Below, in pieces: positions 11,322 through 45,218 of a stretch of DNA of 45,218 nt. Source of the stretch: Cellulomonas cellasea (GTDB taxonomy: Bacteria > Actinomycetota > Actinomycetes > Actinomycetales > Cellulomonadaceae); assembly GCF_006538745.1 (NCBI RefSeq), contig NZ_BJLR01000039.1, forward strand, positions 1 through 45,218. The letters run 5' to 3'. The translations under genes were made by a program, and so were the position numbers. How positions within the stretch are numbered: position 1 is the first letter of the stretch; each line of letters opens with the position of its first letter. A model generated the notes under the pieces. It was not told where the DNA came from and made no database searches. It worked only from the letters and a program-made list of their open reading frames with translations.

Positions 11322-11408
11322 CGTGGCGCACGTCGGACGCGCGACCGGCGGGCCCGTGCACGCCGGGGGAGGTCCCCGGTGTCCACAGGCCCGCCGGTCG
11401 GGCGAGCC

Positions 11409-22247: not shown

Positions 22248-22279
22248 CCTGAGCCGCCGACGACGGTCGGCAGCTCAGG
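22248..22279. terminator. Hairpin between purE and the LCP operon
   Basis: CCTGAGCCGCCGAC (22248-22261) pairs with 22266-22279 in a 14-bp stem with one mismatch and a GACG loop. It overlaps the last codons and stop of the convergent LCP gene and lies 86 nt after purE, so it probably ends both transcripts. Confidence 0.65.
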
Positions 22280-23846
22280 GGGTGGGCATGCCGCCGACCG
22301 GTCCGGCCGGCTGCGCACCGTCGCGGATCGCCGCGAAGAACCCCGGTGCCAGGTCGGGGTCGAGCCGCACGGCCGACCCCACGCCGCCGGGCCGGTAGTC
22401 GACGTCCGAGATCGGCGGGGTCCCCGTGATGCCGTCGGGCCCGTTCGCCGCACGGAACGTCAGCGCCATGCGGCCGAGGTCGAGCATGCCCGTCCCCTCG
22501 CTGACCGTGAGCGCGCCGGTCCCGGACCGCAGGAGCGCGACCTGCTTGCCCGGCTGCATCAGCAGGCCCGGGTCCTGGACGCGGTTCGAGATGGACGCGA
22601 CGAGCTGCTGCTGACGCTCGGCGCGGCCGATGTCCCCGTCGGGGTCCGCCTTGCGCATCCGGGCGAAGGCGAGCGCGTCGAACCCGGTCACGTCGCGGCA
22701 CCCGGGGGTCCAGACCATCCCGCTGTCCTTGTCGTCGACCGTCAGGTCGGAGCACAGGTTCACTCCGCCGACGGCGTCGACGATCTGCTCGAAGCCCGCG
22801 AAGCCGACCTCGACGTAGTGGTCGACCGTCATGCCCGTGAGGCCCTCGACGGTCTGCACGAGCAGCGGTGCCCCGCCCGCCGAGTAGGCCGCGTTGAGCT
22901 TGCCGGGGCCCTGCCCGGGGATGTCGACGTAGGTGTCGCGCGGCAGGCTCAGCAGCGCCGCCGGACCCGAGGTCGGCTGGTGCAGCAGCATCATCGTGTC
23001 GGACCGCTGCCCGGTGGTCTCGGGGTCCTCGATCGCCCCGTCGGCGCGCGAGTCGGAGCCCGTGAGCAGGTATGTGGTGCCGTCCGTCCCCGCCGCGCCC
23101 GAGAGCGCCTCGACGTGCGTCAGGCGTCCGTCGGCCCAGATCAGCAGCCCGATCGGCCAGGCGACGACCGCGACGAGCACGAGCACGAGGCCGACGGCGA
23201 CGAGCCGGCGACGCGAGAGGCGTGGGGCCGCAGGGGAGCCGTCGGTGGCCACGGGAGCCGGGCGGGCAGGGGTCCGGGCGGTGCCGGGGCGTGCGGCAGC
23301 GGACGGTGCGCCGGCGGGCGGCCGGGAGGCCGGTGGGCGTCCACCCGGGGTGCGTGCGGGCCGGGCAGGCGCCGCGTCGGCGGGCGTCGCGCGACCGGCG
23401 ACCATGACCGGCTGGTCGTCCGCCGGGCGGCGTCCGGCGGTCGGTGTGGCCGGGCGGACGGCGGGCGGCCGCCCGGACGCGGGCCCGCGGTCGTCGCGCG
23501 GGGCCGGCGTGCGCACGGGCGTGGGCCGGGCGTCGTCACGTGCCCCTGGTCGTCCGCCGGCCTGCCGGGTGCCGTCGCTCGGGGTCGGTGTCGCGGGCCG
23601 CGCCGTGCGCGGGGGCGCGGGCCTCGACGGCCGGCCGGGCGTGCGCGTCCCGCCGCCGACCGCGACCGCGTCCGCGGCGCTCGGGGGGCGTCCGGACCCG
23701 GTGCCGGGCGCGAAGCTCGGGGGCGTCGCAGCGCCCGGGCCGTTGCGCTGGGGCACCCGGCTGGGTGCTCCGGGGGTCAGCGGACGGGCGGAGCCGCCCG
23801 TGCGGGCGCGCGACCCGCGGGCGCCGGGGTTCTCATCGGGCGTCAT
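22275..23846 (-). CDS. LytR-CpsA-Psr (LCP) family glycan ligase, long N-terminus
   Basis: A 523-residue LCP protein. Residues 1-200 are a disordered cytoplasmic tail rich in Pro, Ala, Arg and Gly. A helix near 210-235 (VAVGLVLVLVAVVAWPIGLL) is followed by the extracellular LCP catalytic domain with TYLLTGSDSRADG, SDTMMLLH, LLSLPRDTYVDIPG, LNAAYSAGG and FARMRKADPDGDIGRAERQQ. LCP enzymes transfer lipid-linked glycans or teichoic acids onto peptidoglycan, and the Asp and Arg residues in these motifs are those used for pyrophosphate binding. It follows a second LCP gene after 9 nt and is probably in one operon with it. Such tails are common phosphorylation sites in actinobacterial LCP proteins. 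Confidence 0.93.
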   Translation of the reverse strand: MTPDENPGARGSRARTGGSARPLTPGAPSRVPQRNGPGAATPPSFAPGTGSGRPPSAADAVAVGGGTRTPGRPSRPAPPRTARPATPTPSDGTRQAGGRPGARDDARPTPVRTPAPRDDRGPASGRPPAVRPATPTAGRRPADDQPVMVAGRATPADAAPARPARTPGGRPPASRPPAGAPSAAARPGTARTPARPAPVATDGSPAAPRLSRRRLVAVGLVLVLVAVVAWPIGLLIWADGRLTHVEALSGAAGTDGTTYLLTGSDSRADGAIEDPETTGQRSDTMMLLHQPTSGPAALLSLPRDTYVDIPGQGPGKLNAAYSAGGAPLLVQTVEGLTGMTVDHYVEVGFAGFEQIVDAVGGVNLCSDLTVDDKDSGMVWTPGCRDVTGFDALAFARMRKADPDGDIGRAERQQQLVASISNRVQDPGLLMQPGKQVALLRSGTGALTVSEGTGMLDLGRMALTFRAANGPDGITGTPPISDVDYRPGGVGSAVRLDPDLAPGFFAAIRDGAQPAGPVGGMPTP

Positions 23847-26763: not shown

Positions 26764-26772
26764 GGCGGCGAC

Positions 26773-27501
26773 CTACTTGTAGAGGAGCTCGGTCAGGATG
26801 TTCACGGAGTTGAGCAGCGACTGCCCCTTCTTCCGCGAGTAGTCCGTGTACAGGATGTGCACCGGCTGCTCGGTGTACCGCAGGCCGGCCTTGCCCACCT
26901 GGTCGACGATCTCCGACGCGTGAGCCATCCGGTTCTGCTTGATGGACAGCGCCGCGGCGCCGGTCCGGTTGAACGCGCGCAGGCCGTTGTGCGTGTCGGT
27001 GAGGTGTACGCCCGACGTGGCGTTCGAGAAGGCGATCGCCGTCTTGAGCACGAGCTTCTTCATCAGTCCCGGCTTGGTCCGCCCGTCGAGGAACCGCGAG
27101 CCGAAGACCACGTCCGCCTCGTCCTTGCGCAGGCGGTCCACCATCGCAGCGGCGTCCTCCGTGCGGTGCTGACCGTCCGAGTCGAACGTGACGACGTAGC
27201 GGCAGCTCGGGCGGCGCAGCGCGAACTCGATGCCCGTCTGGATCGCCGCGCCCTGCCCGAGGTTGATCGGGTGGCTCACGACGACCGCACCCGCGGCCGT
27301 GGCGCGCGCGCCGGAGTCGTCGACGCTGCCGTCGTCGACGCACACGATGTTCGGGAACGTCTCCCGCGCGTGGGTCACTACGTCGTGGATGACCTCGGCC
27401 TCGTTGTAGAGCGGGACGACGAGCCAGGTGTCGTCGTAGGTCACGGGTGCGCCGTCCTGTCGTGCGGTGTCGGGCCCCGGCACTGCGTCGTCGCTGAGCA
27501 T
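26773..27501 (-). CDS. GT2 glycosyltransferase, polyprenyl-phosphate-sugar synthase type
   Basis: A 242-residue GT-A enzyme resembling dolichol-phosphate mannose/glucose synthases. It has the nucleotide-binding start WLVVPLYNEAEVI, a DxD metal site in TFDSDGQHR and GSRFLDGRTKPG. It lacks C-terminal membrane helices; the following DUF2304 protein could provide the anchor. Product: likely a polyprenyl-phosphate hexose for use by membrane glycosyltransferases such as the one at 30772-32247. The ATG lies 6 nt after rmlB; a GTG 19 codons inside is an alternative start closer to the usual family N-terminus. Confidence 0.88.
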   Translation of the reverse strand: MLSDDAVPGPDTARQDGAPVTYDDTWLVVPLYNEAEVIHDVVTHARETFPNIVCVDDGSVDDSGARATAAGAVVVSHPINLGQGAAIQTGIEFALRRPSCRYVVTFDSDGQHRTEDAAAMVDRLRKDEADVVFGSRFLDGRTKPGLMKKLVLKTAIAFSNATSGVHLTDTHNGLRAFNRTGAAALSIKQNRMAHASEIVDQVGKAGLRYTEQPVHILYTDYSRKKGQSLLNSVNILTELLYK

Positions 27502-27507
27502 GGGTCG

Positions 27508-28539
<1,032 letters not shown>

Positions 28540-32247: not shown

Positions 32248-32486
32248 GGCGGCCACCTCCCGGGTCCGGCGGGCGTGCGGGTGCCCGGCCCCGGGGAACC
32301 CTATCCGGCGCGAGCCCGGCGCTCGCCACGGCGTCGCGGGGGACCTCGTCCCCGGTGAGGGGGTTGCGCCCGTTCGCACCTCCGGCGCCGACCGGTGCGC
32401 GGACAGATCGCCGCACACCCGGGCAAAGGCCCCCGGGGTCCCGCGACACGCGCTCCGCGAGGGTCCCCGTGCGGGCTGCGCGGCCG

Positions 32487-32492
32487 TAGCCT
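32487..32492 (+). promoter_or_regulatory. -10 box for the amidase-like gene
   Basis: TAGCCT, 31 nt before the ATG at 32524, leaving a leader of about 25 nt that holds the ribosome site GAGGGGGA (from 32511). Unlike many neighbours, this gene is leadered. Confidence 0.4.
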
Positions 32493-32523
32493 CGGGAGCA
32501 CCACGACCGCGAGGGGGACGGGC

Positions 32524-35193
32524 ATGCAGGTGCCATCAGCACGGGGGCGCGAGAGCGCGAGGGTAGCCGGCATCGCCGCGCTCGCGGTCGCGCTCGTGAC
32601 GGCAGGGGCCGCACCGGGGGTGGCGACGGTCCCGGTCGGGCCCGACCCAGGCACGTCGCCCGTGGCCTCGCCGTCACCCACGGTCGCCGTGGGCGCGGGC
32701 GAGGTCGTCCCGGACGAGGGGGCCGTCGTCGCACCCGAGGGCCCCGCGGGCGGCACCGGCGCGACCGGGGGCACCGACGCCCCGACGAGCGCCGGCACCC
32801 CGACGGCCGGCGACGCGCCGACCAGCACGGACGCACCGTCGCCCGCACCCGCGGACGAGCGTGCGAGCGACGCCGGTCCCGCGACCGGCGCCGGGCTCTC
32901 CAGCGTGCCGGTGGACGCCACGACGCTCCCGGCCGGGGTCGGCCTCACGGGCACCGCCGCGGTGACGACCTCCGAGCTCACCACCGACGTCTTCCACCTC
33001 GCGGCGGTGACCTGGGCCGAGCCCGACGACACGCTCGAGGTGAGCGCGCGGGTGCGCAGCGGCGACGGCTGGACCGAGTGGCAGCACCTCGAGGCGGAGG
33101 AGGGTGCCGGCGCGGACTCGGGACGCGGCGGGACCGCACCGCTCATCGACCTCGCGGGCGCCGACGGCATCCAGGTGCAGCTCGCCAGCCCCGACGGGAC
33201 CTGGCCGTCCGACGTGCGCATCGACCTCGTCGACCCCGGCGAGGAGACCGCGGCGGACCCGGCGCCGGGCGCCGGCACCTCGATGGGTGCCGCGTCGACC
33301 GTCGTGTCGCGGCCGTCGATCATCACGCGCGCGCAGTGGGGCGCCGACGAGAGCATCAACACGAACAACCCGTCGCCCGCACGTGCGCTGAACATGGCGT
33401 TCATCCACCACACGGCGACGACGAACAGCTACGGGCCCGGTGACTCCGCGGCGCAGATCCGCTCCATCTACGTCTACCACGTGCAGGGACGGGGCTGGCC
33501 GGACATCGGCTACAACTTCGTGGTCGACCGCTACGGCCAGGTGTTCGAGGGGCGCTCGGGCGGGATCGACCTGCCGGAGGTCGGCGCGCACGCCGGGGAC
33601 GGCTTCAACACCGGGACCGTGGGGGTCGCGGCGCTCGGGACGTTCAGCACGTCCGTGCCCGACGTGGTGCCCGAGGTCATCTCGCAGGTCGTCGCGTGGA
33701 AGTTCGGCCTCCACCAGGTCGACCCGTACGCGACGGTGCGCATGGTCAGCGGCGGCACCGGGAACGTGCGCTGGGGTGCGGGGACCGAGGTGTACCTCCC
33801 CGCGATCTCGGGGCACCGGCACTCGTCGTTCACCGACTGCCCGGGCGAGGCGCTGTACGCCGCGCTCCCCGCGGTGCGCGCCCGCACCGCGCAGCTGCTC
33901 GCGCAGGCGGCGCACGCGCCGTGGCTCGCGGGCAGCCTCGACGGTGTCCGGGTGCGCGGGAACACCGTGACCGCCTACGGGTGGAGCGCGTCGACGGAGC
34001 GCCCGGGCGAGCCCGTCCAGGTCACCGTCCGGTCGTGGAGCAGGTCCGCGACGACGACGACCGGGGTCGTGCGCACCGACGTCGCCGCGGCCTTCCCGCA
34101 GTACGGGAACCGCGCCGGCTTCGAGGCGAGCCTCGAGCTCCCGCGGAACACCTACCAGGTCTGCGTGGACGTCACCGCGCCCGGGAGACCCGCGGTGACC
34201 CTCGGGTGCGGCTACGCGACCGTCATGACGGGCATGGTGCTCGGGAACGTCGACCTCGTGACGCCGCGGAGCGGCGGGGCCACCATCCAGGGGTGGGCGC
34301 TGCAGCCGGGCGAGCAGGCGCCGAACAAGGTCCACCTCTACGTCGACGGTGCGTGGGGCGGGCAGCTCACCGCGAACGTGCCGCGCGCCGACGTGGCCGC
34401 GGTCTACCCGGCCGAGGGCCCCAACCACGGCTTCGCCGCGAACCTCACGCTCGGCGAGGGCCCGCACGACGTCTGCGCGTACGGCATCAGCCTGCGCGCC
34501 AACGAGACGAACCCGCTGCTCGGCTGCCGCCGGGTCGTGGTGCCCTCGCGCGCACCGGTCGGCAACTTGGAGGCCGTCGTCGGGTCGGACGGTGCAGCGC
34601 GCCTCATCGGCTGGACGTTCGACCCGGACACCTCCGACGCCCTCGACGTGCACGTGTACCGCGGGGGCGCGTGGGCGGGCAGCTTCGTGGCGGGCGGGAA
34701 CCGTCCCGACGTGGCGCGGGCGTTCGGGCTGACGAGCGCCGCCCACGGGCTGACGGCCGACGTGGCGCTGCCGCCCGGCCAGCACGCGTTCTGCGCGTAC
34801 GCGATCAACCGCGGGTCCGTCTCGCCGAACCCGTCGCTCGGCTGCCGGACCGTCGGGGTGCCGCTCGGCAACCCGTTCGGCAGCCTCGACATCGTCGAGC
34901 GTGTGACGGGCGGCGCGGCCGGTGAGACGCGGCTGCGCGGCTGGGTGATCGACCCCGACACCCGCGCGGCAGCCGCCGTGCACGTCTACGTGGACGGCTG
35001 GATGCAGGGCGCCTACACCGCAGGCGCCGCACGGGCGGACGTCGGCTCCGCCTACCCGACGCTCGGTGCCGGGCACGGCTACGACGTGCGGCTCCGGCTC
35101 ACGGGCGGCACGCACAACGTGTGCGTGTACGCCATCAACACGGGGGTCGGCACGACCAACCCGCTCGTCGGCTGCCGGACCGTCACGGTCTGA
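32524..35193 (+). CDS. Secreted PGRP/amidase-like protein with four C-terminal repeats
   Basis: An 889-residue exported protein. A signal peptide (about 1-34) is followed by a long low-complexity Thr/Pro/Ala/Gly linker (35-130), a strand-rich domain (about 135-245) and a PGRP/amidase_2 domain (about 263-460) with RAQWGADES, FIHHTAT and GHRHSSFTDCPG. The His residues of the first and the His and Cys of the last are the expected zinc ligands of an N-acetylmuramoyl-L-alanine amidase. Four repeats of about 105 residues start near 470, 574, 680 and 786; three end in GCR(R/T)V after a CAYAI- or CVYAI-like strand. The repeats may bind wall carbohydrate. The ATG has GAGGGGGA upstream. Confidence 0.88.
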   Translation: MQVPSARGRESARVAGIAALAVALVTAGAAPGVATVPVGPDPGTSPVASPSPTVAVGAGEVVPDEGAVVAPEGPAGGTGATGGTDAPTSAGTPTAGDAPTSTDAPSPAPADERASDAGPATGAGLSSVPVDATTLPAGVGLTGTAAVTTSELTTDVFHLAAVTWAEPDDTLEVSARVRSGDGWTEWQHLEAEEGAGADSGRGGTAPLIDLAGADGIQVQLASPDGTWPSDVRIDLVDPGEETAADPAPGAGTSMGAASTVVSRPSIITRAQWGADESINTNNPSPARALNMAFIHHTATTNSYGPGDSAAQIRSIYVYHVQGRGWPDIGYNFVVDRYGQVFEGRSGGIDLPEVGAHAGDGFNTGTVGVAALGTFSTSVPDVVPEVISQVVAWKFGLHQVDPYATVRMVSGGTGNVRWGAGTEVYLPAISGHRHSSFTDCPGEALYAALPAVRARTAQLLAQAAHAPWLAGSLDGVRVRGNTVTAYGWSASTERPGEPVQVTVRSWSRSATTTTGVVRTDVAAAFPQYGNRAGFEASLELPRNTYQVCVDVTAPGRPAVTLGCGYATVMTGMVLGNVDLVTPRSGGATIQGWALQPGEQAPNKVHLYVDGAWGGQLTANVPRADVAAVYPAEGPNHGFAANLTLGEGPHDVCAYGISLRANETNPLLGCRRVVVPSRAPVGNLEAVVGSDGAARLIGWTFDPDTSDALDVHVYRGGAWAGSFVAGGNRPDVARAFGLTSAAHGLTADVALPPGQHAFCAYAINRGSVSPNPSLGCRTVGVPLGNPFGSLDIVERVTGGAAGETRLRGWVIDPDTRAAAAVHVYVDGWMQGAYTAGAARADVGSAYPTLGAGHGYDVRLRLTGGTHNVCVYAINTGVGTTNPLVGCRTVTV

Positions 35194-35345: not shown

Positions 35346-37178
35346 TCACGGCTGCGTCAGGCGTCGCTTGACCCGGCCGGCGATCCGACGCGCCTTGCGC
35401 ACGGCGCTCGTGTCGTTGCGCCGGCGCAGCTCGGTGAGCTCGGCCTCCTGCACGCCGAGCCGGGCGTGCAGCCGGGAGAGCTCCGCCTCGACGTCCGCGA
35501 GCCGGCGGACCTCGCCGCGCAGCGTCGCGAGCTCGTCGCCCGCGCGGCGGTGCTCCCGGAAGTCGGAGACGTTGGTGTCGAGGAGCTCACGGAGCTGGCC
35601 CACGGAGCGCGCCGCACGCGCCGCCGGGCTCGCGTCCGAGGTGTTGACCGCTGCCTGGAAGGCCGACTCGGCGGTCACGAAGCGCTCGAGCGCGGCCTCG
35701 TCGACCGTCACGCCCACGTGGCCGGCGAGGATCGTCACGACGTCGCGGACCGTCCGGGGCGAGCCCCAGTCGCTCGGCTCGGTGCTGCGGGCGACGTCGA
35801 CCGCGCTCCAGAACGCCCCACGGATCAGGTGGTTCTCCCGGCCGTAGCCCTGCACGAGCCACTCCTGGTCGATGACGACCAGCGTGTCCGAGGAGTCGAC
35901 GATGATGTTGTGCGGGACGAGGTCGACCGGCGTCCACTCGTCCTCGACCACGCGGTCCGCCCAGCGCTTGAGCAGGACGCCCGCCTGGCCCGGGTCGCGC
36001 TCGACGAGGTCGAGGAGCGTGTGACCGGTGACGTGCGGGGCGCTCGGCTCCAGGACGTGCCGGACGTGCTCGGCGCCCGCCTCGGCCGGGAGGGACTCGT
36101 TCACGGCGGTCCGCACGAAGTCGATGCCGTCCGCGTGCCGGACGATCTGCGTGCGGACGGCGAAGCGCGGCTGACGCTCCGCGGTGAACGCGACGCCGAG
36201 TCGGTCGGACGGCCAGATCGACGACGGGGCACCGCGGTCGGCGACGACGACGAACGAGTTGGCGAAGTGCGTGCCCACGCCGGTGTCGACGAGCGTGCGC
36301 CAGGCGAGCCGCTCGTCGGCGAGCGACATGCGCTGCGTCATGTAGTCCGGGCTCGGGAAGGGCGGGATGCGCGAGGCGAGCGACCGGTCCTCGTCGAAGA
36401 GCTGGTCGTCGAGCAGGACCCGCGGCAGCTTGTAGTCCGGGAAGGCGCCGAGGACGCGTGACGTGAAGCCCGCCGTCTCGAGGAGCCCCGTGAGGCGCTG
36501 GCGGGTGAACGTCCGCGCCGGCGACGGCAGCGGGTACCCCTCGATCGAGTCGAACGCCCGGTCCGTGTGGTCCTCGGGCGCCCCGACGAGGTACTTGACG
36601 CCGACCTGGTTCTCGATCGCGAGCACGAGCGTGCCGTCCGGACGCAGCACCGACGCGATGCGACGCAGGAAGTCGACGTAGGGCTCGGGGGAGTCGGTCC
36701 CGTGCGCGACGTACTCGAGCACCCCGACGACGACGACGACGTCGTACGTCGGCTCGGCGGGGACGTCGTCGAGCGTGCCGACCATGACGGCGACGTTGGG
36801 CTGGTCACGCGTCCGCAGGCGCGCGACACGCGCGCGGGCGGCCATCGGCTCGACCGCGTCGACGAGGGCGACCTGCTCGCCGAGGTACCGCGTGATCGGG
36901 CCGCAGCCGCAGCCGATCTCGAGCACCCGGGCGTCTGCGGGGAGGTCGAGCCCGCGCAGCAGGTTCGCGCGCACGGTGGTCAGCGAGTAGCGCGTGGCCC
37001 AGTCCGTCGCGGCGTCCGCCAGCTCCTGCGAGGAGGACGAGAGGTCGCTCGCACGGGACACGATGCCCGCGAGCGTCTGCTCCGCGCCGTCGGCGTAGGC
37101 GAGGCCGGCCTCGGAGAGCACACGGCAGCCGAACTCGTCGACGGTGCCGAGCGCGCGCACGGGGGTGGGAGACGACAT
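35346..37178 (-). CDS. Methyltransferase / kinase-like / coiled-coil protein, WbdD-like
   Basis: A 610-residue protein with three parts. Residues about 60-240 are a class I SAM methyltransferase (motif I VLEIGCGCGP near 86, acidic VDAVEP near 103, VGVLEYV). Residues about 330-470 look kinase-like: VDLVPHNIIVD near 418-428 resembles the catalytic Asp-x4-Asn loop of small-molecule kinases and VVIDQEW near 434 the DFG-like metal Asp. I do not see a canonical N-lobe Lys. Residues about 543-586 form a heptad coiled coil, followed by a very basic tail. This order is that of WbdD, which caps and so limits the length of polymannose O-antigens. It is the last gene of the Wzm-Wzt operon. Capping is inferred from architecture and context. 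Confidence 0.75.
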   Translation of the reverse strand: MSSPTPVRALGTVDEFGCRVLSEAGLAYADGAEQTLAGIVSRASDLSSSSQELADAATDWATRYSLTTVRANLLRGLDLPADARVLEIGCGCGPITRYLGEQVALVDAVEPMAARARVARLRTRDQPNVAVMVGTLDDVPAEPTYDVVVVVGVLEYVAHGTDSPEPYVDFLRRIASVLRPDGTLVLAIENQVGVKYLVGAPEDHTDRAFDSIEGYPLPSPARTFTRQRLTGLLETAGFTSRVLGAFPDYKLPRVLLDDQLFDEDRSLASRIPPFPSPDYMTQRMSLADERLAWRTLVDTGVGTHFANSFVVVADRGAPSSIWPSDRLGVAFTAERQPRFAVRTQIVRHADGIDFVRTAVNESLPAEAGAEHVRHVLEPSAPHVTGHTLLDLVERDPGQAGVLLKRWADRVVEDEWTPVDLVPHNIIVDSSDTLVVIDQEWLVQGYGRENHLIRGAFWSAVDVARSTEPSDWGSPRTVRDVVTILAGHVGVTVDEAALERFVTAESAFQAAVNTSDASPAARAARSVGQLRELLDTNVSDFREHRRAGDELATLRGEVRRLADVEAELSRLHARLGVQEAELTELRRRNDTSAVRKARRIAGRVKRRLTQP

Positions 37179-37183
37179 CGGTT

Positions 37184-38539
37184 CTACCTCTCACGGGTGG
37201 GGGTCGCGGCGCGGGGAGCGCCAGGACGGATCATCGCCAGAGCCCGCCGCCCCACTGCATGACGGAGCTCACGCCGTCGGTCGCCCGCGTTCATGCGTCG
37301 GACGCGCGCGACCTGGGCCCGCCGTCGACCACCCAGCAGATCGGGCGCCGACGCCGGAGCCGAACAGTACTCCAGCAGCGGGCCCGCCACGCGGGTCCAG
37401 CGCAGCGAGGGGGCGAGCGCCGAGGCAGCGGCCCGCGCGGCGTCGAGCGCGGCGCGGTCGCCGAGCACCTGGGCGAGCCGGTCGTGCAGCGCGTCGACGT
37501 CGCCGGGGGGCACGGTCCAGCCGGCGCCGTGCGCCTCGAGGAGCGTGCTGAGGGGGTCTCCGCCGGTCGCGAGCGTCGGGACGCCCGCCCAGACGTAGTC
37601 CAGCAGCCGCGTGCGGTAGGAGAACTCCGTCTCGACGTGCGCGAGGTGCGTGCTGACGCCGAGCGTGGCGTCCGCGAGGTAGTCGGCCCGGCGGTCGTAG
37701 TCGATCCAGCCGGGCAGGAAGAACACGTGCGTGCCGAGCACGCCGAGCTCGTCCGCCGCCGCGCGGGCGCGCCGGGCAGCCTCGCCGCTGCGCACGTCGG
37801 GGTTCGGGTGCGCACCGCCCGCGAACGCCAGGCGCACGGTCGGACGGGTGCGGACGAGCCGCGCGACCGCGCGCACGAGGACCTCGGGGTCGAACCAGTT
37901 GTAGAGCCCGCCACCCCAGTACAGGACGTCGGAGTCGTCGTCGATCTCGGGGACGGCGGCGCGCAGGCCGCCGCCCGCAGTGGCGGCCGGGGGCGCGGGC
38001 AGGCCGAACGGGACGACGGCGAGCAGCCGGCTCAGCGCGGGGTCCGCGTCGTACGTGTCGGGGTTGATCCGGCCGTGCGCGGCGAGGTGGCCGACCCACA
38101 GCTTGCGCTGGTCGTCCGACGCGCACAGGAACGTGTCGCCGAGCAGCGCGTTCGTCCGCATGGCACGCACGGCCGCGTCGACCGCGAGCTGCCGGTGCCG
38201 GGGCGGCAGGTCCGCGGTCTGCTCGAGCGCCTCGAGGTGGAACGGGTCGTACAGGTCGACCACCAGGCGTGCCCGGCCCGACGCGAGCGCCGGGTGGCGG
38301 TCGAGCAGGTCGCCGCCGACGACGACGACGTCGGCCTGGTCCGCCGTCGCCGCGACGTCCCCGGGGGCCACGTGGCGCACCGGGACGTCGCCCTCACGGG
38401 GCGCGACCTGCCCGGTGCTGACGACACCCGCGTCGTGCCCCGCCGCGCGCAGCACCCGGGCCAGCTCGAGGCACCGGATCGCCGGGCCCGCGACCCGGTC
38501 GGTGACCGGCTCGGGGGTCAGGAACGCGACTGACGTCAC
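37184..38539 (-). CDS. GT4 glycosyltransferase
   Basis: A 451-residue GT-B enzyme. It opens with VAFLTPEPVTDRVAGPAIRC, has LYWGGGLYNWFDPEVLVRAV at the domain boundary, FLPGWIDYDRRADYLADA and the donor-site stretch FSYRTRLLDYVWAGVPTLAT. The C-terminal 45 residues are Arg-rich. The GTG overlaps the stop codon of the upstream three-domain transferase by 4 nt, and the capping-protein gene follows 5 nt downstream. Sugar specificity cannot be read; a role in the exported polymer is inferred. Confidence 0.88.
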   Translation of the reverse strand: MTSVAFLTPEPVTDRVAGPAIRCLELARVLRAAGHDAGVVSTGQVAPREGDVPVRHVAPGDVAATADQADVVVVGGDLLDRHPALASGRARLVVDLYDPFHLEALEQTADLPPRHRQLAVDAAVRAMRTNALLGDTFLCASDDQRKLWVGHLAAHGRINPDTYDADPALSRLLAVVPFGLPAPPAATAGGGLRAAVPEIDDDSDVLYWGGGLYNWFDPEVLVRAVARLVRTRPTVRLAFAGGAHPNPDVRSGEAARRARAAADELGVLGTHVFFLPGWIDYDRRADYLADATLGVSTHLAHVETEFSYRTRLLDYVWAGVPTLATGGDPLSTLLEAHGAGWTVPPGDVDALHDRLAQVLGDRAALDAARAAASALAPSLRWTRVAGPLLEYCSAPASAPDLLGGRRRAQVARVRRMNAGDRRRELRHAVGRRALAMIRPGAPRAATPTRER

Positions 38540-41500
38540 GAAGCCTCCGGGTCGCACAGGTACGCGTACAGCCCGGAGAACGCTCCGTCCCAGTCGGAGT
38601 GGCGCGCGTCGATGTCGGCGGTCGCCTGCTCCGACAGGCGGCGGCGAAGGTTCGCGTCCTCGACGAGGCGGGAGAGCTGCTCGACGATGCCCGAGACGCC
38701 GAGCTCGGCGAGGAGCGAGTTGCGCTCGTCGTCGAGGATCCAGTGGCCCCACGGGTTGTCGAACGCGACGACCGGCACGCCCGACGCCATGAGCTCGAGC
38801 GGCAGGTACGACGGGTGCTTCGACACCGTCAGGGCGAGCCCGATGTCGACCGTGCGGTACAGGACGCCCGTCGCGCGGTAGTCGAGCAGGCCGAGCTGCT
38901 GGATGTCGCCCGCGCGCGAGGTCCCGCGCGCCCACGAGCCGGCCGCGACGATCCGGACACCCTTGCCGTACTTCTGCTTGATCTCGCCCAGCGCCAGCGA
39001 GGCGATCTCCCAGCAGTTGCGCCAGTGTCCCGGGCGTCCGTACAGGAAGATCGTCACGGGCCGGTCGGTCGGGCGGGGCTCGTCCCCGTCGTGGAAGACG
39101 CCGCGGTCCACGGCCGGCATGAAGGACGTGCCCTTGCCGTGGTAGTCCTCGCGGTAGATCTTGTGGAGGTTCGCCGTGTTGCAGATCCCGTACAGCCCGA
39201 GCCGGTAGGACTCCTCGGTGAGGGCGTAGAGCGAGCCCGCCGGGTAGAACATCGGCTCGAAGTCCTGGATCAGGTAGAACCGGCGCGGGGCGCTGCTCGA
39301 CTTCGCGACGAAGTACGCCGTGACCCACAGGGTCGCGATCGAGGCGTCGGCCTCGGGGACCGCGTCGAGCTGGGCGGCGCTGCCGTCGTGGAACACGATC
39401 TCGGAGTCCGCGAGCCCCGGGAACGCCGCCGCGACCGCGGAGCGGACGTACAGGTCGTGCGGCGCGCCCCACACGATGAACCGGTTGACGACGCCGTGCT
39501 CGCGGCGCAGGTGGTCCGCGAGCCGGAAGGCGGTGTTGATCCCGCCGTAGTACGGCGAGTCGATGTCCGGGATGAACCAGTTGACGGTCCGGACCTCGCG
39601 GAACCCCTGCGTCGAGGCGTGCACGGCGTCGAGGCGCGCCTTGTCCGTCGAGTCGGCCCGGCACAGGTCGGCGAGCATCATCGCCTCGTTCTCGTCGTTC
39701 GCCTGACGGAAGATCGTCAGGTTCCGGCCGAGCGGCTCCGAGAGCATCTGACGCGCCGTGGGCTCCTGCTCGCTGCGCAGCCGCGGAGTGCGGCTCGTGA
39801 GCGACAGGTGCGGCGAGAAGTACGGGTCGCCACCGAGGACCCACGGGTTGTAGCGCCAGTAGCTCGCGAAGAAGTCCTCCGGGGGCACCGTCGAGCCGCG
39901 CGTCGCGGACTCGAGGTGACGCACGCCCACGTGCGGCGAGCACACGTTGCGCCGCCCGGACAGCACCGCGTCGAGGCCGAGCGTGACGTCGGACCCACAC
40001 AGCACGAAGCGCTCGTCGAACCCGCCGAGCTCCTCGAACACGTCGCGGCGGATCGCGAGGCACGCGCCCGTGACCGACAGCGTGTTGCGGTACCGGTCGG
40101 TGGCGCCGAGGAGGCTGTCCGAGCCGGGCTCCATGCCCTGGAACAGGTGGTCGGCGAACCCGCCGAGCCCGAGCACCACGCCCCCGTGCTGGATCTTGCC
40201 GTCCGCGTCGAGCAGCTGACCCCCGACGCACCCGATCTCGGGCTGGACGGCCCAGCCGACGAGCTCCTGGAGCCAGCGGGCGTCGGCGACCTCGGTGTCG
40301 TCGTTGAGGAAGACGACGACCTCGCCGCCGGACTGCCGCGCCGCGACGTTGTTGACGCGCGAGTAGTTGAACGGCGCCTCGGTCCACCACGTGACGGTCA
40401 GCTCGCGGCCGAGCGCGTCCCGCTGAGCGGCGTACCACGCGTCGTTGTCGGCCGACTGCCCGCCGTTGTCGATGACGTGCACGTCCCACTCGCCCGCGTA
40501 GTCGGTGCTGCGCAGCGACGCGAGCGCACGCCCGAGCAGCGGCCGGTTGTGCCGGGTCGGGACCACCACCGACACCGACGGCCACGACGCCGGCGTCGGC
40601 GTCACGCGGAGGCTGTCGCGCCCCGCGGTGACGAGCGACGGGCGCCCGATCTTCTCGAGGTGCGCGCGCACGGCCTGCGCACCCTCCTCGGTGACCCGGT
40701 CGTGGTGGTTCTGCACGCGCGCCAGCGGCCGGGTGACCCGGTCGGACTGGGGCTGCGTCGCCGTCGAGCGGACCAGCAGGTCCCACAGCGCCGCGTCGGT
40801 GCCGAGAGCGGCGAGGCCGCCCAGCTCGACGACGAGGCTGCGACGCATCGCGAAGGCCGCGCCGACGTAGTTGGCGCCGAGCAGCGCCTCGGGTGACCAG
40901 GAGGGGCGGATCCGGGCGGTCGGCTCCTCGCCGCGCGCACCCCGGACCTCGTCCCAGGTGACGATGTCGAGCAGCGGGTTCTCCCACGCGGCGCCGGCGA
41001 CCTGGAACAGGGCGTCGGGCGCCAGGACGTCTCCGGCCGGCAGGAACACGACGTAGTCCGCGGCGGACACCACGGCCGCGCGGGTCGCGTGCTCGGTCCA
41101 GTGCGTGTCCGCGGTCCACACGTGCTCGGCCTCGGTGGACGTCGTCGTCGGCGCGACGTCGCCGCACACCACGACGCTGCGGTGGGTCCACGACTGCGCG
41201 AGGACCGAGTCGATGCTCGCGTCGACGGCGCCGACGCCCGCGCCGGTGTACGGGGTGACCACGACGAGGAACGTCACGGGGTCGGTCGCCGCCTGCGCGT
41301 ACGCGCGCTGGTCACGCAGCGAGTCCCGGCTCGCGGAGAGCTGCGAGAGCCACGTCCCGACCGAGGGGCTCGCCGGGGTGATGGCCCCGGTCGCGGTGAA
41401 CGCGCTGCGGACCTGCCCCGCGGCGGACCGGGCGATCCGCGCGGACTCGAGTGCCGCCTTGGCGGTCGCCCGCTTGCGGGTCCCCGGTGCGAGGCGTTCG

Positions 41501-41556
41501 GACGCCTCGGTGCGGACCCGCTCGAACGCCTGGCGGGGGGTCGGGATCCAGCTCAT
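38536..41556 (-). CDS. Three-domain glycosyltransferase (GT2-like, GT2, WsaF-like GT4)
   Basis: A 1006-residue enzyme. Residues 1-85 are helical and basic. Residues about 90-310 are a GT2-like domain with only FLPAGDV at the metal site. Residues about 328-600 are a full GT2 domain (SVSVVVPTRHNRPLL, metal site VFLNDDTEVAD, FVLCGSDVTLGLD). Residues about 650-1000 form a GT-B domain opening with VNWFIPDIDSPYYGGINTAF and ending in the donor motif SYLPLELMASGVPVVAFDNP; this resembles the rhamnosyltransferase WsaF of S-layer glycan synthesis. It could add several residues of the repeat unit. The ATG overlaps the wzt stop by 4 nt. Rhamnose as donor is inferred. Confidence 0.85.
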   Translation of the reverse strand: MSWIPTPRQAFERVRTEASERLAPGTRKRATAKAALESARIARSAAGQVRSAFTATGAITPASPSVGTWLSQLSASRDSLRDQRAYAQAATDPVTFLVVVTPYTGAGVGAVDASIDSVLAQSWTHRSVVVCGDVAPTTTSTEAEHVWTADTHWTEHATRAAVVSAADYVVFLPAGDVLAPDALFQVAGAAWENPLLDIVTWDEVRGARGEEPTARIRPSWSPEALLGANYVGAAFAMRRSLVVELGGLAALGTDAALWDLLVRSTATQPQSDRVTRPLARVQNHHDRVTEEGAQAVRAHLEKIGRPSLVTAGRDSLRVTPTPASWPSVSVVVPTRHNRPLLGRALASLRSTDYAGEWDVHVIDNGGQSADNDAWYAAQRDALGRELTVTWWTEAPFNYSRVNNVAARQSGGEVVVFLNDDTEVADARWLQELVGWAVQPEIGCVGGQLLDADGKIQHGGVVLGLGGFADHLFQGMEPGSDSLLGATDRYRNTLSVTGACLAIRRDVFEELGGFDERFVLCGSDVTLGLDAVLSGRRNVCSPHVGVRHLESATRGSTVPPEDFFASYWRYNPWVLGGDPYFSPHLSLTSRTPRLRSEQEPTARQMLSEPLGRNLTIFRQANDENEAMMLADLCRADSTDKARLDAVHASTQGFREVRTVNWFIPDIDSPYYGGINTAFRLADHLRREHGVVNRFIVWGAPHDLYVRSAVAAAFPGLADSEIVFHDGSAAQLDAVPEADASIATLWVTAYFVAKSSSAPRRFYLIQDFEPMFYPAGSLYALTEESYRLGLYGICNTANLHKIYREDYHGKGTSFMPAVDRGVFHDGDEPRPTDRPVTIFLYGRPGHWRNCWEIASLALGEIKQKYGKGVRIVAAGSWARGTSRAGDIQQLGLLDYRATGVLYRTVDIGLALTVSKHPSYLPLELMASGVPVVAFDNPWGHWILDDERNSLLAELGVSGIVEQLSRLVEDANLRRRLSEQATADIDARHSDWDGAFSGLYAYLCDPEAS

Positions 41557-42821
41557 CGGGTCTCCTCCAGCGTCGCGTCCGCGACGGTCGACAGTCGCCA
41601 GGTGCCGGGCAGCACGACGTCACCGCCCTGGGCGGGTCCGCGCCCGGTCTGGACCGTCAGCGACGCGGTTCGGTCCAGGTGGTCGTAGATGTGGGTGTAG
41701 GTCGAGTCGGTCACGCCGATCGAGACCTTCCAGTGACCGTGCTGCAGCGGCAGCCGGTCCAGGTGGTAGTCGACGTGGCCGTCGCCCTCGAGCACGCCGA
41801 GATCCATGCTGACCGAGTTCGGGCCGGCGACCTTCTGCCCGTGCTCGGGGTAGAACGCGAGGGCGAAGACGGGGTTCTCGACGGGGGAGTGCGCGCGGAA
41901 GCGGACCCGGAGCGTGAGCTCCTCGCCCGTGACCGCCATGCCGCCGTCGTCGCCGGCGATCACGTCGAGCCCGAGCACCTCGATCTCGCCGGTGCCCTTG
42001 CGGTTCGACGTGTCGAGGCCGGCGTCGGGGGTGACGGTGTGGGTGCGCTCGAGGCGCGTGCTCTCGCGCTTGTTGACGTCCCGGACGTAGGCGTCCACGA
42101 CCTCGATCGCGGGCCCCTCCGCGACGAGGCGCCCGTGGTCGAGCCACGCGACGCGGTCGCACATCGTCTGGACCAGCGCGAGCGAGTGGCTCACGAAGAT
42201 GATCGTGACGCCGCGCGAGCGCAACTCGGCCAGGTAGTCGAAGCAGCGCCGCTGGAAGTCCTCGTCACCGACGGCCAGGATCTCGTCGACGATGAGGATC
42301 TCGGGGTCGAGGTGCACGGCGATCGAGAAGCCGAGCCGTGCGTACATCCCGCTGGAGTAGACCTTGACGGGCGAGTCGATGAAGTCGCCGAGCCCGGCGA
42401 ACTCGAGGATGCGGTCGAACGCCTCGTCGATCTTCTTCTTCGGCATGCCGAGGATCGAGCCGTTGAGGTAGATGTTGTCGCGCCCCGAGAGCTCGGGGTG
42501 GAAGCCCGCGCCCAGCTCGAGCAGGGCCGAGACCCGGCCTGCGTGCTCGACGGAGCCCGAGGTCGGACGGTGGATGCCCGCCATGAGCTTGAGCAACGTC
42601 GACTTGCCCGAGCCGTTGTGCCCGATGAGCCCGTACGTCGTGCCGCGCTCCACCTGGAGGTCGACGTCCCGCAGGGCCCAGAAGTCGTGGTAGCTCGAGC
42701 GGCCGCGGACGAAGAGCTCCTTGAGGCTCGTCCGCCGCTCGTTCGCGAGGCGGAACCTCTTCGAGACCGAATCGACGGTCACCGCGATGTCCCGGCCGTC
42801 CGTGGCCAGCGCGTCGTTCAC
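41553..42821 (-). CDS. wzt: Polysaccharide ABC exporter ATPase with glycan-binding C-terminus
   Basis: A 422-residue Wzt. The ATPase part has Walker A GHNGSGKS (67-74), signature YSSGMYARLGFS (155-166, the Wzt/TagH form of LSGGQ), Walker B ILIVDEILAVGDEDFQ (from 175) and the switch His in FVSHS. Residues about 270-422 form a beta-rich domain like the C-terminal carbohydrate-binding domain of O9a-type Wzt, which recognises the capped chain end. Mycobacterial galactan Wzt lacks this part. GTG at 42821 overlaps the wzm stop codon by 4 nt. Confidence 0.92.
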   Translation of the reverse strand: MNDALATDGRDIAVTVDSVSKRFRLANERRTSLKELFVRGRSSYHDFWALRDVDLQVERGTTYGLIGHNGSGKSTLLKLMAGIHRPTSGSVEHAGRVSALLELGAGFHPELSGRDNIYLNGSILGMPKKKIDEAFDRILEFAGLGDFIDSPVKVYSSGMYARLGFSIAVHLDPEILIVDEILAVGDEDFQRRCFDYLAELRSRGVTIIFVSHSLALVQTMCDRVAWLDHGRLVAEGPAIEVVDAYVRDVNKRESTRLERTHTVTPDAGLDTSNRKGTGEIEVLGLDVIAGDDGGMAVTGEELTLRVRFRAHSPVENPVFALAFYPEHGQKVAGPNSVSMDLGVLEGDGHVDYHLDRLPLQHGHWKVSIGVTDSTYTHIYDHLDRTASLTVQTGRGPAQGGDVVLPGTWRLSTVADATLEETR

Positions 42822-43630
42822 AGGTCCTCCGCGATGTCGAGGGCGGACCGCTGGAACACGGCCCAGCCGATGAGGAACGTGAGGACGGCGATCGCCGTGA
42901 GCGCGAGCATGAGCGTCAGGCTCGGCAGCACGCCGTACCAGAGGGCGTCGCGCGCCGCCTCGACGAACCGGCCCAGCGGGTTCAGGCCCATGATCCAGCG
43001 CGCCGGGATGCCCGACGCCGTCTCGACGGGGATGTCCTCGGGCGGGTAGATGATCGCCGTCGCGTAGAACAGGAACTGCATCGCGACGCCGACGAGGTAC
43101 CCGACGTCGCGGTAGCGGACGTTCGCGACCGACACCATGAGGCCGAGCCCGATCGAGAACAGCGCGAGCAGCGCGAAGACGACGGGGACGACCAGGACGG
43201 CCCACGAGAGGTTCTGCGCGAACGCGAGGACGACGACGAGGATCCCGAACTCGATGCCGGTCTGCACGAGCGCCGACATCGCGTTCCCGATCACGGGCGC
43301 GAACGCGGGGAAGCGGATCTTCTTCAGCAGGGGGCCGGCGCCGATCAGCGCGCCCATGCTCGAGGTGACGATGCCGTTGAAGAAGTTCCAGCACACGAGC
43401 CCGATGAACAGGTAGATCGTGTAGCTCTCGAGGCGCCCGTTCCCGGCGACCGGGGGGACCCGCTGGAAGATCGTGGAGAAGACGAGCGTGAAGATCAGGA
43501 GCGTCGCGGCGGGGTTCGCGAGCGACCACAGCCAGCCGGCGGCGCTGCCCCGGTACCGACCTTTGAGCTCCCGTCGCGCGAAGTTGGTCGTCAGGGCGCG
43601 GTACGTCCAGAGCTCGGACAGGTCCTTCAT
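42818..43630 (-). CDS. wzm: Polysaccharide ABC exporter permease
   Basis: A 270-residue ABC-2 permease with six predicted helices and the family motifs FARRELKGRYRGSAAGWLWS at the N-terminal interface helix and NPLGRFVEAARDALW before the last helices. It exports lipid-linked polysaccharide together with Wzt. I chose the ATG at 43630 because family members begin with this KDLSELW-type stretch; an upstream GTG at 43684 would begin only 3 nt after the likely -10 box. GGGAGA lies 12 nt upstream, rather far. It is the first gene of the operon. Confidence 0.9.
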   Translation of the reverse strand: MKDLSELWTYRALTTNFARRELKGRYRGSAAGWLWSLANPAATLLIFTLVFSTIFQRVPPVAGNGRLESYTIYLFIGLVCWNFFNGIVTSSMGALIGAGPLLKKIRFPAFAPVIGNAMSALVQTGIEFGILVVVLAFAQNLSWAVLVVPVVFALLALFSIGLGLMVSVANVRYRDVGYLVGVAMQFLFYATAIIYPPEDIPVETASGIPARWIMGLNPLGRFVEAARDALWYGVLPSLTLMLALTAIAVLTFLIGWAVFQRSALDIAEDL

Positions 43631-43687
43631 ACGAGGTGAGTTTCTCCCATGGGGGGTGACCGCGGGCACGGCAGCGGACGGCACGAG

Positions 43688-43695: not shown

Positions 43696-44805
43696 TCACC
43701 CGCCCTGGCCTGCTGCGTCGTGGTAAACGGCGGCCGTCGCCCGGGCCGCCTGCTCCCAGGTGAGCCCCGCGGCCGCGCGTCGGCCCGCCTCGCCGAGCCG
43801 CGTCCACGCGTCACCGAGCACCGCGGTCAGGCCCGCCGCGATGTCGCCGACGTCCCGGGGGTCGACGAGGACGCCCGCGTCCCCCGTGAACTCCGCCATC
43901 GACGTGCCGGCGCTCGTCACGACCGGCACGCCGTGCGCCATCGCCTCGAGCACCGGCATCCCGAAACCCTCCCAGAGCGAGGGGTAGCAGAAGGCGGCCG
44001 CGCCGGCGTACGCCCGGTGGAGGTCGGCCTCGGGGAGCCGGCCGAGGTGACGGACGTCACGGTCCTGCCGCGTGTCGTGCTCGGCGAGCCCCGCGCCCCA
44101 GCCCGACGGGCCGACGAGCACGAGGTCGAGCGGCTCGGGCAGGTCGGCGGCGAGGAACGCCTCGACGAGCCGGTCCACGTTCTTGCGCGGCTCGACCGTG
44201 CCGCACCACAGCACGTACGGGCGGCGCAGGTCGTGGCGCGTGCGGAAGTCCTCGACCTCGGCGGCCCGCACGGCGGGCACCCGGACACCGTGCGGCACGA
44301 CGACCACCCGCGCGGCGTCGATGCCGGCCTCGACGCAGTCGTCCCGGGTCGCGACGGACGGGACCACGACGCGCGTCGCCTCGTCCCGAGTCCGCGCGAG
44401 GCTCCGTCGGAAGTAGCGGGCGCCCCGCGGCGTGAAGTGCTCGGGCGTGCGCAGGAAGGCCAGGTCATGGACGGTCACCACCAGGGGCCGGCGCGTCGGC
44501 GGCACCGCCCAGGTCGTCGCGTGGACGACGTCGGCGCCGCGGACGAGGTGCTCGGCCCGCGGGGCGCCCGCCCAGTTCCACGCGTCGTAGAGCACGCGGC
44601 GCGGCACCGGGGCCACCGCCGTCGACCGCACGCTCGGCCGCAGGTGCGGGGCGGGCTCGCTACCCCCGGGATGGGCGGCGCGCACGCCGACGACGTCCGG
44701 TGCCGGGTCGAGCGTGGCGAGCGCCTCGGTGAGCCGGGCGACGTAGGTGCCCGAGCCGCCCGGCACGGGCTGCCAGCTCTGCTCGACGACCATCGCCACT
44801 CTCAC
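43696..44805 (-). CDS. GT4 glycosyltransferase
   Basis: A 369-residue GT-B enzyme. The N-terminal domain has VEQSWQPVPGGSGTYVARL and VHDLAFLRTPEHFTPRGARY; the C-terminal domain has VLWCGTVEPRKNVDRLVEAF, FCYPSLWEGFGMPVLEAMAH and a helical end. It resembles mannosyltransferases that start or extend bacterial O-polysaccharides. GTG at 44805 is the first plausible start; an ATG four codons later is an alternative. It is on the same strand as the wzm-wzt operon, 65 nt upstream of wzm, and divergent from the partial gene at the right edge. Confidence 0.88.
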   Translation of the reverse strand: MRVAMVVEQSWQPVPGGSGTYVARLTEALATLDPAPDVVGVRAAHPGGSEPAPHLRPSVRSTAVAPVPRRVLYDAWNWAGAPRAEHLVRGADVVHATTWAVPPTRRPLVVTVHDLAFLRTPEHFTPRGARYFRRSLARTRDEATRVVVPSVATRDDCVEAGIDAARVVVVPHGVRVPAVRAAEVEDFRTRHDLRRPYVLWCGTVEPRKNVDRLVEAFLAADLPEPLDLVLVGPSGWGAGLAEHDTRQDRDVRHLGRLPEADLHRAYAGAAAFCYPSLWEGFGMPVLEAMAHGVPVVTSAGTSMAEFTGDAGVLVDPRDVGDIAAGLTAVLGDAWTRLGEAGRRAAAGLTWEQAARATAAVYHDAAGQGG

Positions 44806-44912
44806 CGCGGACCGGCCCCTCTCGGCTGTGCGCGGGCTCCGCCGGTGCGGACGGGTGTCGGTCCCCGGGCCACGCACTGCGAGTATGACGTGGCCCACCC
44901 GGCACGACCTAC

Positions 44913-44918
44913 AGGAGG
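44913..44918 (+). promoter_or_regulatory. Ribosome-binding site fixing the right-edge gene start
   Basis: AGGAGG with 5-nt spacing to GTG (44924). It favours this start over the in-frame ATG at 44885, which has no such site. Confidence 0.65.
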
Positions 44919-44923
44919 CGCAC

Positions 44924-45218
44924 GTGCACGCGCTGCGACGCCCGCCCGACCCGTCGGCGGCCGGGGACGGCACGGTGGCCGGCGGCACCGCCGGGGACGC
45001 GGCCGGCAGCACGGCCGGTGGCGAGCGCGACGGCACGGCGCGGCACGGTGCGCTCGAGCGCGTCGGGGTGCTCGTGGGTGCGCTCGTCGACCGTGCGCTC
45101 GCGGTGGCCGTCGTCGCCTTCGCCGCCTGGACCCTTCTCTACGAGCTCGCGCTCGCGCAGCTCCTCCCGGCGGTGCTCGCCGGCTGGCTCGCGCTCGCGG
45201 CCGCCGCGGGCCTCGCCG
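44924..45218 (+). CDS. Membrane protein, N-terminal part (cut by window end)
   Basis: An open frame of 98 codons that runs off the window without a stop. The first 55 residues are Gly/Ala/Asp/Arg-rich and likely disordered and cytoplasmic. Hydrophobic segments follow (LAVAVVAFAAWTLLYELALA and then LLPAVLAGWLALAAAAGL). The start is supported by a consensus AGGAGG. It is divergent from the GT4 gene at 43696. Polytopic membrane proteins such as O-antigen ligases or GT-C enzymes are common at this place in glycan clusters, but too little is visible to name it. Confidence 0.7.
   Translation, partial: MHALRRPPDPSAAGDGTVAGGTAGDAAGSTAGGERDGTARHGALERVGVLVGALVDRALAVAVVAFAAWTLLYELALAQLLPAVLAGWLALAAAAGLA

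What the first reader, a model, noticed from the sequence alone, without database searches (positions are those of the whole stretch)
35346..43630. Candidate end-capped polysaccharide export system in a Gram-positive
One operon with overlapping genes encodes Wzm, a Wzt with an extra beta-rich C-terminal domain, a three-domain glycosyltransferase, a GT4, and a methyltransferase/kinase-like/coiled-coil protein. In E. coli O8/O9a, WbdD (same three-part order) caps the chain and sets its length, and the Wzt C-terminal domain reads the cap. The same logic seems present here beside LCP ligases that fix glycans to peptidoglycan. A chain-length ruler and cap-gated export for a Gram-positive wall glycan would be new to me.
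Basis: partly seen in the sequence, partly recalled or inferred. Interest (0 to 1): 0.78.

Follow-up and report, generated by a model that had tools for sequence, protein, structure and literature searches.

The report
Capped sugar-chain exporter in an actinobacterium
An actinobacterium of the Cellulomonas group carries genes that look able to build a surface sugar chain, cap its end with phosphate and methyl, and export the capped chain; the cap enzyme belongs to a family proven in Klebsiella, so this is a known kind of machine in bacteria where I found no report of it.

Summary
Minus-strand genes 43684-35346 encode Wzm, a Wzt with a Wzt_C carbohydrate-binding domain, a multi-domain glycosyltransferase, a GT4, and a 610-aa methyltransferase + kinase + long-helix protein. 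The kinase fold is predicted with confidence (pLDDT 91.7; all 50 rows listed by the structural aligner are of the kinase fold) and its catalytic residues are invariant in 71 homologs. Of the 80 best homologous loci, 51 have a Wzt with that extra domain within 5 kb. A pattern fits the ruler idea: of 76 untruncated homologs, all 52 with a Wzt-like gene within 5 kb have at least 66 residues after the kinase, while 9 of the 24 without have 45 or fewer (not corrected for kinship; some flanks short). Against: in actinobacteria the gene is often not next to Wzt, and the Trp of the Aquifex methyl-sugar pocket is absent. Cap-gated export was already proposed for Geobacillus S-layer glycans. Wall attachment, cap chemistry and gating are inferred. 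Verdict: new member of a known kind, in a lineage where my searches showed no description.

The parts
42818..43684 (-). Wzm, ABC-2 permease (288 aa; alternative ATG start at 43630)
   Evidence: PF01061 5.2e-20
41553..42821 (-). Wzt: ATPase plus C-terminal carbohydrate-binding domain (residues about 272-422)
   Evidence: PF00005 5.3e-21 and PF14524 Wzt_C 2.9e-18; profile of the domain matches six distinct ABC-transporter chains in the PDB, among them 8dky, 6o14, 5hno and 2r5o
38536..41556 (-). Multi-domain glycosyltransferase, likely chain polymerase (1006 aa): GT2 329-511, WsaF-like rhamnosyltransferase module 659-961; N-terminal 320 residues unassigned
   Evidence: PF00535 5.7e-13, WsaF_N 1.4e-9, WsaF_C 4.2e-19
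37184..38539 (-). GT4 glycosyltransferase (451 aa)
   Evidence: PF13692 1.1e-9
35346..37178 (-). Predicted chain terminator (610 aa): methyltransferase about 22-318, kinase about 322-510, long C-terminal helix 537-608
   Evidence: PF13489 1.3e-13; models pLDDT 80.5 and 91.7 for the kinase; fold matches; conserved D419, N424, D437
43696..45036 (-). GT4 glycosyltransferase just upstream, probably of the same cluster
   Evidence: PF13692 6.7e-26
27508..28503 (-). RmlB, dTDP-glucose 4,6-dehydratase (precursor of rhamnose)
   Evidence: TIGR01181 458 bits, cut-off 365
22275..23846 (-). LCP-family glycopolymer transferase, possible wall ligase
   Evidence: PF03816 1.3e-41; TIGR00350
23856..26420 (-). 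Long open frame holding a second LCP domain (residues 545-710); true start not determined, its 5' part overlaps galE on the other strand
   Evidence: PF03816 4.5e-39
32395..35193 (+). Amidase_2 protein; proteins similar to it lie within about 3.3 kb of the terminator gene in L033, L049, L072 and L038
   Evidence: PF01510 3.5e-10; neighbours (the nearest one in L033 is of the Rv2525c-like kind by Pfam)

Best explanation
The cluster makes a rhamnose-containing surface glycan by the ABC-transporter route with capping. The multi-domain glycosyltransferase and the GT4 enzymes polymerise the chain on a polyprenol carrier in the cytoplasm. The 610-aa protein ends growth: its aminoglycoside-phosphotransferase-like kinase phosphorylates the non-reducing terminal sugar and its methyltransferase methylates the phosphate; the C-terminal helix acts as a spacer that sets the minimum length before capping. 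The Wzt C-terminal domain recognises the cap, and Wzm-Wzt then exports the chain, which LCP enzymes probably attach to peptidoglycan. Shown here: gene set, domains, predicted folds, conserved catalytic residues, family resemblance, neighbourhood statistics. Inferred: cap chemistry, ruler action, gating, rhamnose as the capped sugar, wall attachment.
Against: In 13 of 18 actinobacterial named loci no Wzt was found in the held flank, which is short in some, and 6 of those 18 genomes gave no Wzt_C match. In 3 of the 6 family genomes with both, the distance is 26-31 kb; in G056 another methyltransferase match lies closer to Wzt, and in G076 the better of two homologs lies on a different contig from Wzt_C. 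The Aquifex pocket Trp362 is replaced (His in the window, Trp in none of 14; my reading of the alignments). O7 ORF6 has an extra Ig-like domain after the kinase that I do not see in the model. Heptad periodicity of the helix is only modest (272 of 5000 shuffles reach it). Three of the 55 near Wzt-like genes lack the extra domain, and one was not measured. The tail/Wzt counts are not corrected for kinship. LCP genes are about 10 kb from the operon. No chemistry of the glycan is known to me.
Confidence: 0.68

Rival explanations
1. The methyltransferase-kinase decorates the glycan (internal methyl-phosphate or a side group) rather than ending the chain, and Wzt's extra domain reads a repeat-unit feature. 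Export is not gated by a cap.
For: Nine homologs have little room for a spacer and no Wzt-like gene within 5 kb of the held DNA, so the catalytic pair can probably work outside a ruler/gate system; 4 of these are actinobacterial genomes without a Wzt_C match.
Against: The window protein is of the tail-bearing class next to a Wzt_C; the characterised family member terminates chains (PMC11231755).
Confidence: 0.15
2. The system is real and cap-gated, but the product is a capsule, exopolysaccharide or glycoprotein glycan (as in Geobacillus S-layers) and LCP enzymes are not its ligases.
For: Geobacillus precedent with overlapping wzm, wzt, wsaE and a 2-O-methyl cap (PMC2943079, passages); LCP genes are about 10 kb away.
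Against: LCP-like and Amidase_2-like genes also lie within about 9 kb of the terminator in L033, L049 and L038.
Confidence: 0.3
3. The kinase is inactive and the cap is a plain O-methyl group, as in E. coli O8 or Geobacillus.
For: No lysine is invariant or nearly invariant in the kinase alignment, so the usual ATP-binding lysine is not evident.
Against: Asp, Asn and Asp of the catalytic and metal motifs are invariant in 71 of 71, and the O7 enzyme, of the same family, is an active kinase abolished by D441A (PMC11231755). The Aquifex methyl pocket Trp is absent.
Confidence: 0.07

Closest known systems
Klebsiella pneumoniae O7 terminator ORF6-N and its ABC-dependent pathway (PMC11231755)
   Same: Methyltransferase, then aminoglycoside-phosphotransferase-like kinase, then coiled coil; matching key residues and similar spacing; similar nearest folds; rhamnose context; ABC-transporter pathway with capped chain.
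   Different: O7 ORF6 also carries an Ig-like domain and fused GT2 modules; here the polymerase is a separate gene. O7 builds LPS O antigen; here LCP enzymes are the likely ligases. The O7 sequence itself was not available to me.
E. coli O9a WbdD and Wzt (PMC3482155)
   Same: Same domain order and proposed logic; Foldseek ranks WbdD 4azs seventh, 546 alignment columns with gaps on a 442-residue chain, so probably both domains (range not printed); 2r5o, which I recall as the O9a Wzt domain, found by profile (E 0.0015).
   Different: Sequence match to WbdD covers the methyltransferase only; PMC11231755 calls the O7 and WbdD kinases quite different in sequence and structure.
Geobacillus stearothermophilus S-layer glycan system, WsaE with Wzm-Wzt (PMC2943079)
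   Same: Gram-positive; overlapping wzm, wzt and glycosyltransferase genes; WsaF module; methyl cap predicted to be bound by Wzt.
   Different: WsaE is described as methyltransferase plus two glycosyltransferase domains, no kinase; the product is attached to an S-layer protein.
Mycobacterial galactan exporter Wzm-Wzt (PMC10951656)
   Same: Actinobacterial ABC export of a lipid-linked wall glycan.
   Different: NCBIfam galactan models score far below cut-off here (82 of 380, 191 of 400 bits) and match only Wzt's ATPase part; size control there is proposed to involve GlfT2-transporter contacts.

Membership tests
O7-type methyltransferase-kinase chain terminators | N-terminal SAM methyltransferase with the E/DxGxGxG loop and the O7 contact residues | tested here: met
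   PF13489; Y28, Y64, G89, G91, E110, Y156 align with Y28, Y66, G91, G93, E112, Y158 (residues)
O7-type methyltransferase-kinase chain terminators | Unannotated phosphotransferase-like kinase domain with catalytic Asp | tested here: met
   Model and fold matches; D419 invariant; no consistent Pfam match
O7-type methyltransferase-kinase chain terminators | Coiled coil after the kinase | tested here: inconclusive
   72-residue helix predicted with leucine at every seventh place over five repeats, but periodicity only modest (272 of 5000 shuffles)
O7-type methyltransferase-kinase chain terminators | Terminates the chain with methyl-phosphate | not testable with these tools
   Needs enzyme assay and glycan NMR
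WbdD (E. coli O9a) | Kinase domain of the eukaryotic-like WbdD kind | tested here: inconclusive
   Sequence match to the methyltransferase only; Foldseek alignment of WbdD has rmsd 17.5; phosphotransferases rank first for the kinase alone, eukaryotic-type kinases follow
Wzt with cap-binding domain | C-terminal Wzt_C domain | tested here: met
   66.6 bits, cut-off 30.4; profile hits to six distinct PDB sequences of such transporters
Wzt with cap-binding domain | Binds the chain end | not testable with these tools
   Needs a binding assay; Aquifex Trp362 is not conserved
Mycobacterial galactan Wzm-Wzt | NCBIfam galactan exporter models over cut-off | tested here: not met
   82.1 of 380 and 190.9 of 400 bits
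LCP-ligated wall glycan | Glycan covalently on peptidoglycan | not testable with these tools
   LCP genes in the window only

The most novel reading that the evidence does not exclude
Actinobacteria of several families set the length of a peptidoglycan-bound rhamnose glycan with a methyl-phosphate cap, a coiled-coil ruler and a cap-reading Wzt, so that only finished chains reach the LCP ligases. A second branch of the same enzyme (seen in Amycolatopsis, Actinosynnema and flavobacteria) has lost or never had ruler and gate and caps glycans of some other pathway.
Probability: 0.4. Interest if true: 0.6.

Novelty: new member of a known kind. Interest (0 to 1): 0.45.

Why it matters
To my knowledge, how wall glycan length is set in actinobacteria is little understood; for mycobacterial galactan, contacts of GlfT2 with the exporter are proposed (PMC10951656, passages). 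A cap-and-gate system with a defined enzyme gives a direct test in a harmless genus. The kinase domain has no consistent Pfam match although 470 stretches of the species collection encode a relative of the protein (only the best 80 were examined), so a proper family model would help to predict many surface glycans. The tail/Wzt association suggests a simple sequence rule for telling ruler-type terminators from other uses.

Tried and rejected
First scan of genome contigs with the single protein gave nothing; the scan with alignment A1 gave 470 relatives of 547 candidates, of which the best 80 were kept. Filing as a WbdD relative was set aside because only the methyltransferase matches by sequence and phosphotransferases lead the kinase matches. 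The whole-model fold search was filled by methyltransferases, so the kinase was folded alone. Pfam on 71 kinase regions found no shared family. AmiN, the match that the O7 paper names for the kinase, is not among the 50 rows listed. I did not fold the Wzt domain; its identity rests on Pfam and the PDB profile. Adjacency as a general rule in actinobacteria was rejected. Literature: in the titles and abstract starts listed by searches I saw no paper that describes this cap system in actinobacteria (several listings were cut: 20 of 24, 20 of 54, 15 of 272, 10 of 15); one search had no hits. Mann et al. 2019 (Glycobiology), a survey of such systems, was seen only as a reference; I recall that it mentions Gram-positives, so prior mention there is possible. 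The sequence of Klebsiella O7 ORF6 was not held; the link rests on published residue numbers. Rows dropped: L040 (fused frame, misaligned) but still; L031, L032, L034 are the same records as L052, L042, L039 and were left out of A2 and but counted; L035-L037 were left out; four truncated frames (L083, L085, L104, L106) were left out of its test. Of the nine short-tailed homologs, three (L087, L093, L095) have only 0.3-3.3 kb upstream; without such short flanks six remain. The 52 with a Wzt-like gene include three whose Wzt lacks the extra domain (L092, L094, L116; L094 is the one with 66 residues) and one unmeasured (L101). On the required recheck I corrected distances and caveats and lowered the main confidence from 0.70 to 0.68 because the genome association weakens to p 0.02 without the window's own genome.
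Full report
What is there. The window belongs to a genome of 4.73 Mb. The five minus-strand genes overlap or nearly touch: Wzm 43684-42818, Wzt 42821-41553, a 1006-aa glycosyltransferase 41556-38536, a GT4 38539-37184 and the 610-aa protein 37178-35346. Another GT4 lies directly upstream (43696-45036), and at lower coordinates are glycosyltransferases, RmlB, a GalE and LCP genes. The genome gave one Wzt_C match, one match to the 610-aa protein, and two PF00953 and two PF02397 matches, candidates for starting a lipid-linked chain.

The Wzt domain. Residues 272-393 match PF14524 with 66.6 bits against a cut-off of 30.4. A profile of 14 actinobacterial domains finds 8dky and 6o14 (8e-14, 1e-13), 7k2t and 8dku (3e-13), 5hno (5e-13) and 2r5o (0.0015), and beyond these only a spermine oxidase at E 0.14. 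6o14 and 7k2t are Aquifex Wzt by PMC9445017 (passages); that 5hno is Raoultella O12 and 2r5o E. coli O9a is recalled. In Aquifex the 3-O-methyl group is held by Leu300, Thr346, Ala348 and Trp362. Reading the printed alignments together, the Trp362 place is His in the window and Trp in none of the 14; the Asn313 place is Asn in the window and in 9 of 14. So the domain is of the right kind, but the pocket is not the Aquifex one.

Distribution and context. The genome-contig scan found 470 relatives; the best 80 were kept, among them Cellulomonas, Actinotalea, Sanguibacter, Modestobacter, Blastococcus, Amycolatopsis, Desulfotruncus and many Pseudomonas. In 51 of 80 a Wzt with a C-terminal tail of at least 150 residues lies within 5 kb, 47 of 62 outside my actinobacterial group and 4 of 18 inside it; 3 have a tail-less Wzt, 1 an unmeasured one, 2 a distant one, 23 none in the held flank (tail lengths). 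Of the 18 actinobacterial genomes searched whole, 12 have Wzt_C somewhere (which examined 19 records with 13 positive). In 121 sampled genomes of the family, 7 have a full-length-type homolog (my cut, E below 1e-40) and 44 have Wzt_C, 6 both (Fisher p 0.009; 5 of 6 and p 0.02 without the window's own genome). In these 6 a homolog and Wzt_C share a contig at 3.2 to 31 kb, though in G076 it is the weaker of two homologs and in G056 another methyltransferase lies nearer. The seventh, G119, is a 79% complete genome. In Cellulomonas L033 the block Wzm, Wzt, RgpF-type rhamnan genes, terminator stands between amidase-like and RmlB/LCP genes; L049 and L072 have terminator, Wzm, Wzt and a gene similar to the window's GT4, with amidase-like genes near both and an LCP gene near L049. 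The polymerase differs between loci while terminator and exporter stay, as expected of interchangeable parts.

A test of the ruler idea. I measured the residues after the kinase's conserved E504. Of 76 untruncated homologs, 52 have a Wzt-like gene within 5 kb, and all 52 have at least 66 residues; of the 24 without, 9 have 10-45 residues (p 9e-6, not corrected for kinship). Keeping only Wzt with the extra domain and only loci with at least 4 kb held on both sides leaves 48 of 48 against 10 of 16 (p 1e-4). The nine short ones are Amycolatopsis (3), Actinosynnema, four flavobacterial records and a Phycisphaerae record (titles). From, actinobacterial genomes with a measured tail-bearing homolog have Wzt_C in 11 of 13, those with a short one in 0 of 4 (p 0.006; the four are close kin). 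The window protein has 106 residues there. Where there is no room for a spacer no cap-reading transporter was found nearby, which fits the ruler-and-gate reading; it also suggests that the catalytic pair can be used without it. The converse fails: 15 of 24 homologs without a nearby Wzt do have a tail.

How it most likely works. Chain growth by the multi-domain glycosyltransferase, capping by phosphate then methyl, recognition of capped chains by Wzt, export by Wzm-Wzt, and ligation, probably by LCP enzymes. Only the parts list, predicted folds, residues and associations are shown; each functional step is inferred from characterised relatives. Rhamnose is suggested by RmlB, the WsaF module, and rhamnan genes in relatives.

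What is new. Cap-dependent export is known in Gram-negatives, and was proposed in a 2010 review for the Geobacillus S-layer glycan with its 2-O-methyl cap (PMC2943079, passages). PMC10951656 (passages) describes an actinobacterial Wzm-Wzt for galactan; the words cap and carbohydrate-binding do not occur in its main text. The listings of my eight literature searches showed no O7-type terminator in actinobacteria, but listings were partial and the most relevant survey (Mann et al. 2019) was not read. I rate it a new member of a known kind, useful because it opens wall glycan length control in actinobacteria to direct test.

Noticed in passing
L043, L044, L045, L051, L066, L068, L087, L093, L095: Homologs that end soon after the kinase (10-45 residues beyond E504), none with a Wzt-like gene within 5 kb of the held DNA; in Amycolatopsis L044 the neighbours include an AlgX-like protein and glycosyltransferases. 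Their role is unknown.
   Followed up: partly
L033:273-15550: In a congener the stretch with Wzt and terminator has third-position G+C of 0.66-0.81, against 0.83-0.94 on the RmlB/LCP side, as of an acquired cassette; the window's own genes are at 0.97.
   Followed up: no
G114, G008, G108, G112, G101, G095, G023, G043, G092 near their Wzt_C genes: In nine family genomes without the full homolog, another methyltransferase match lies 2-6.5 kb from a Wzt_C gene; in all, 13 of 44 Wzt_C genes have such a match within 10 kb, probably an undercount as at most 10 candidates a genome were scored. Other cap chemistries may be common in this family.
   Followed up: partly
window 26365-27501: DUF2304 gene beside a family 2 glycosyltransferase that resembles PpgS polyprenyl-phospho-GalNAc synthase (297 bits, under the cut-off of 370): a possible donor for extracellular side-chain addition.
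   Followed up: no
window 32395-35193: Amidase_2 protein with several similar C-terminal repeats after the enzyme domain (seen by eye); similar proteins recur at related loci and might bind or process the wall at the glycan.
   Followed up: no
L101: A MAG named Candidatus Micrarchaeota holds an 1815-aa frame with this terminator right after a Wzt-like ATPase; binning error not excluded.
   Followed up: no
window 7104-11438: Open frames of about 1400 codons on both strands over the same stretch at nearly 80% G+C; at most one can be a gene as drawn.
   Followed up: no
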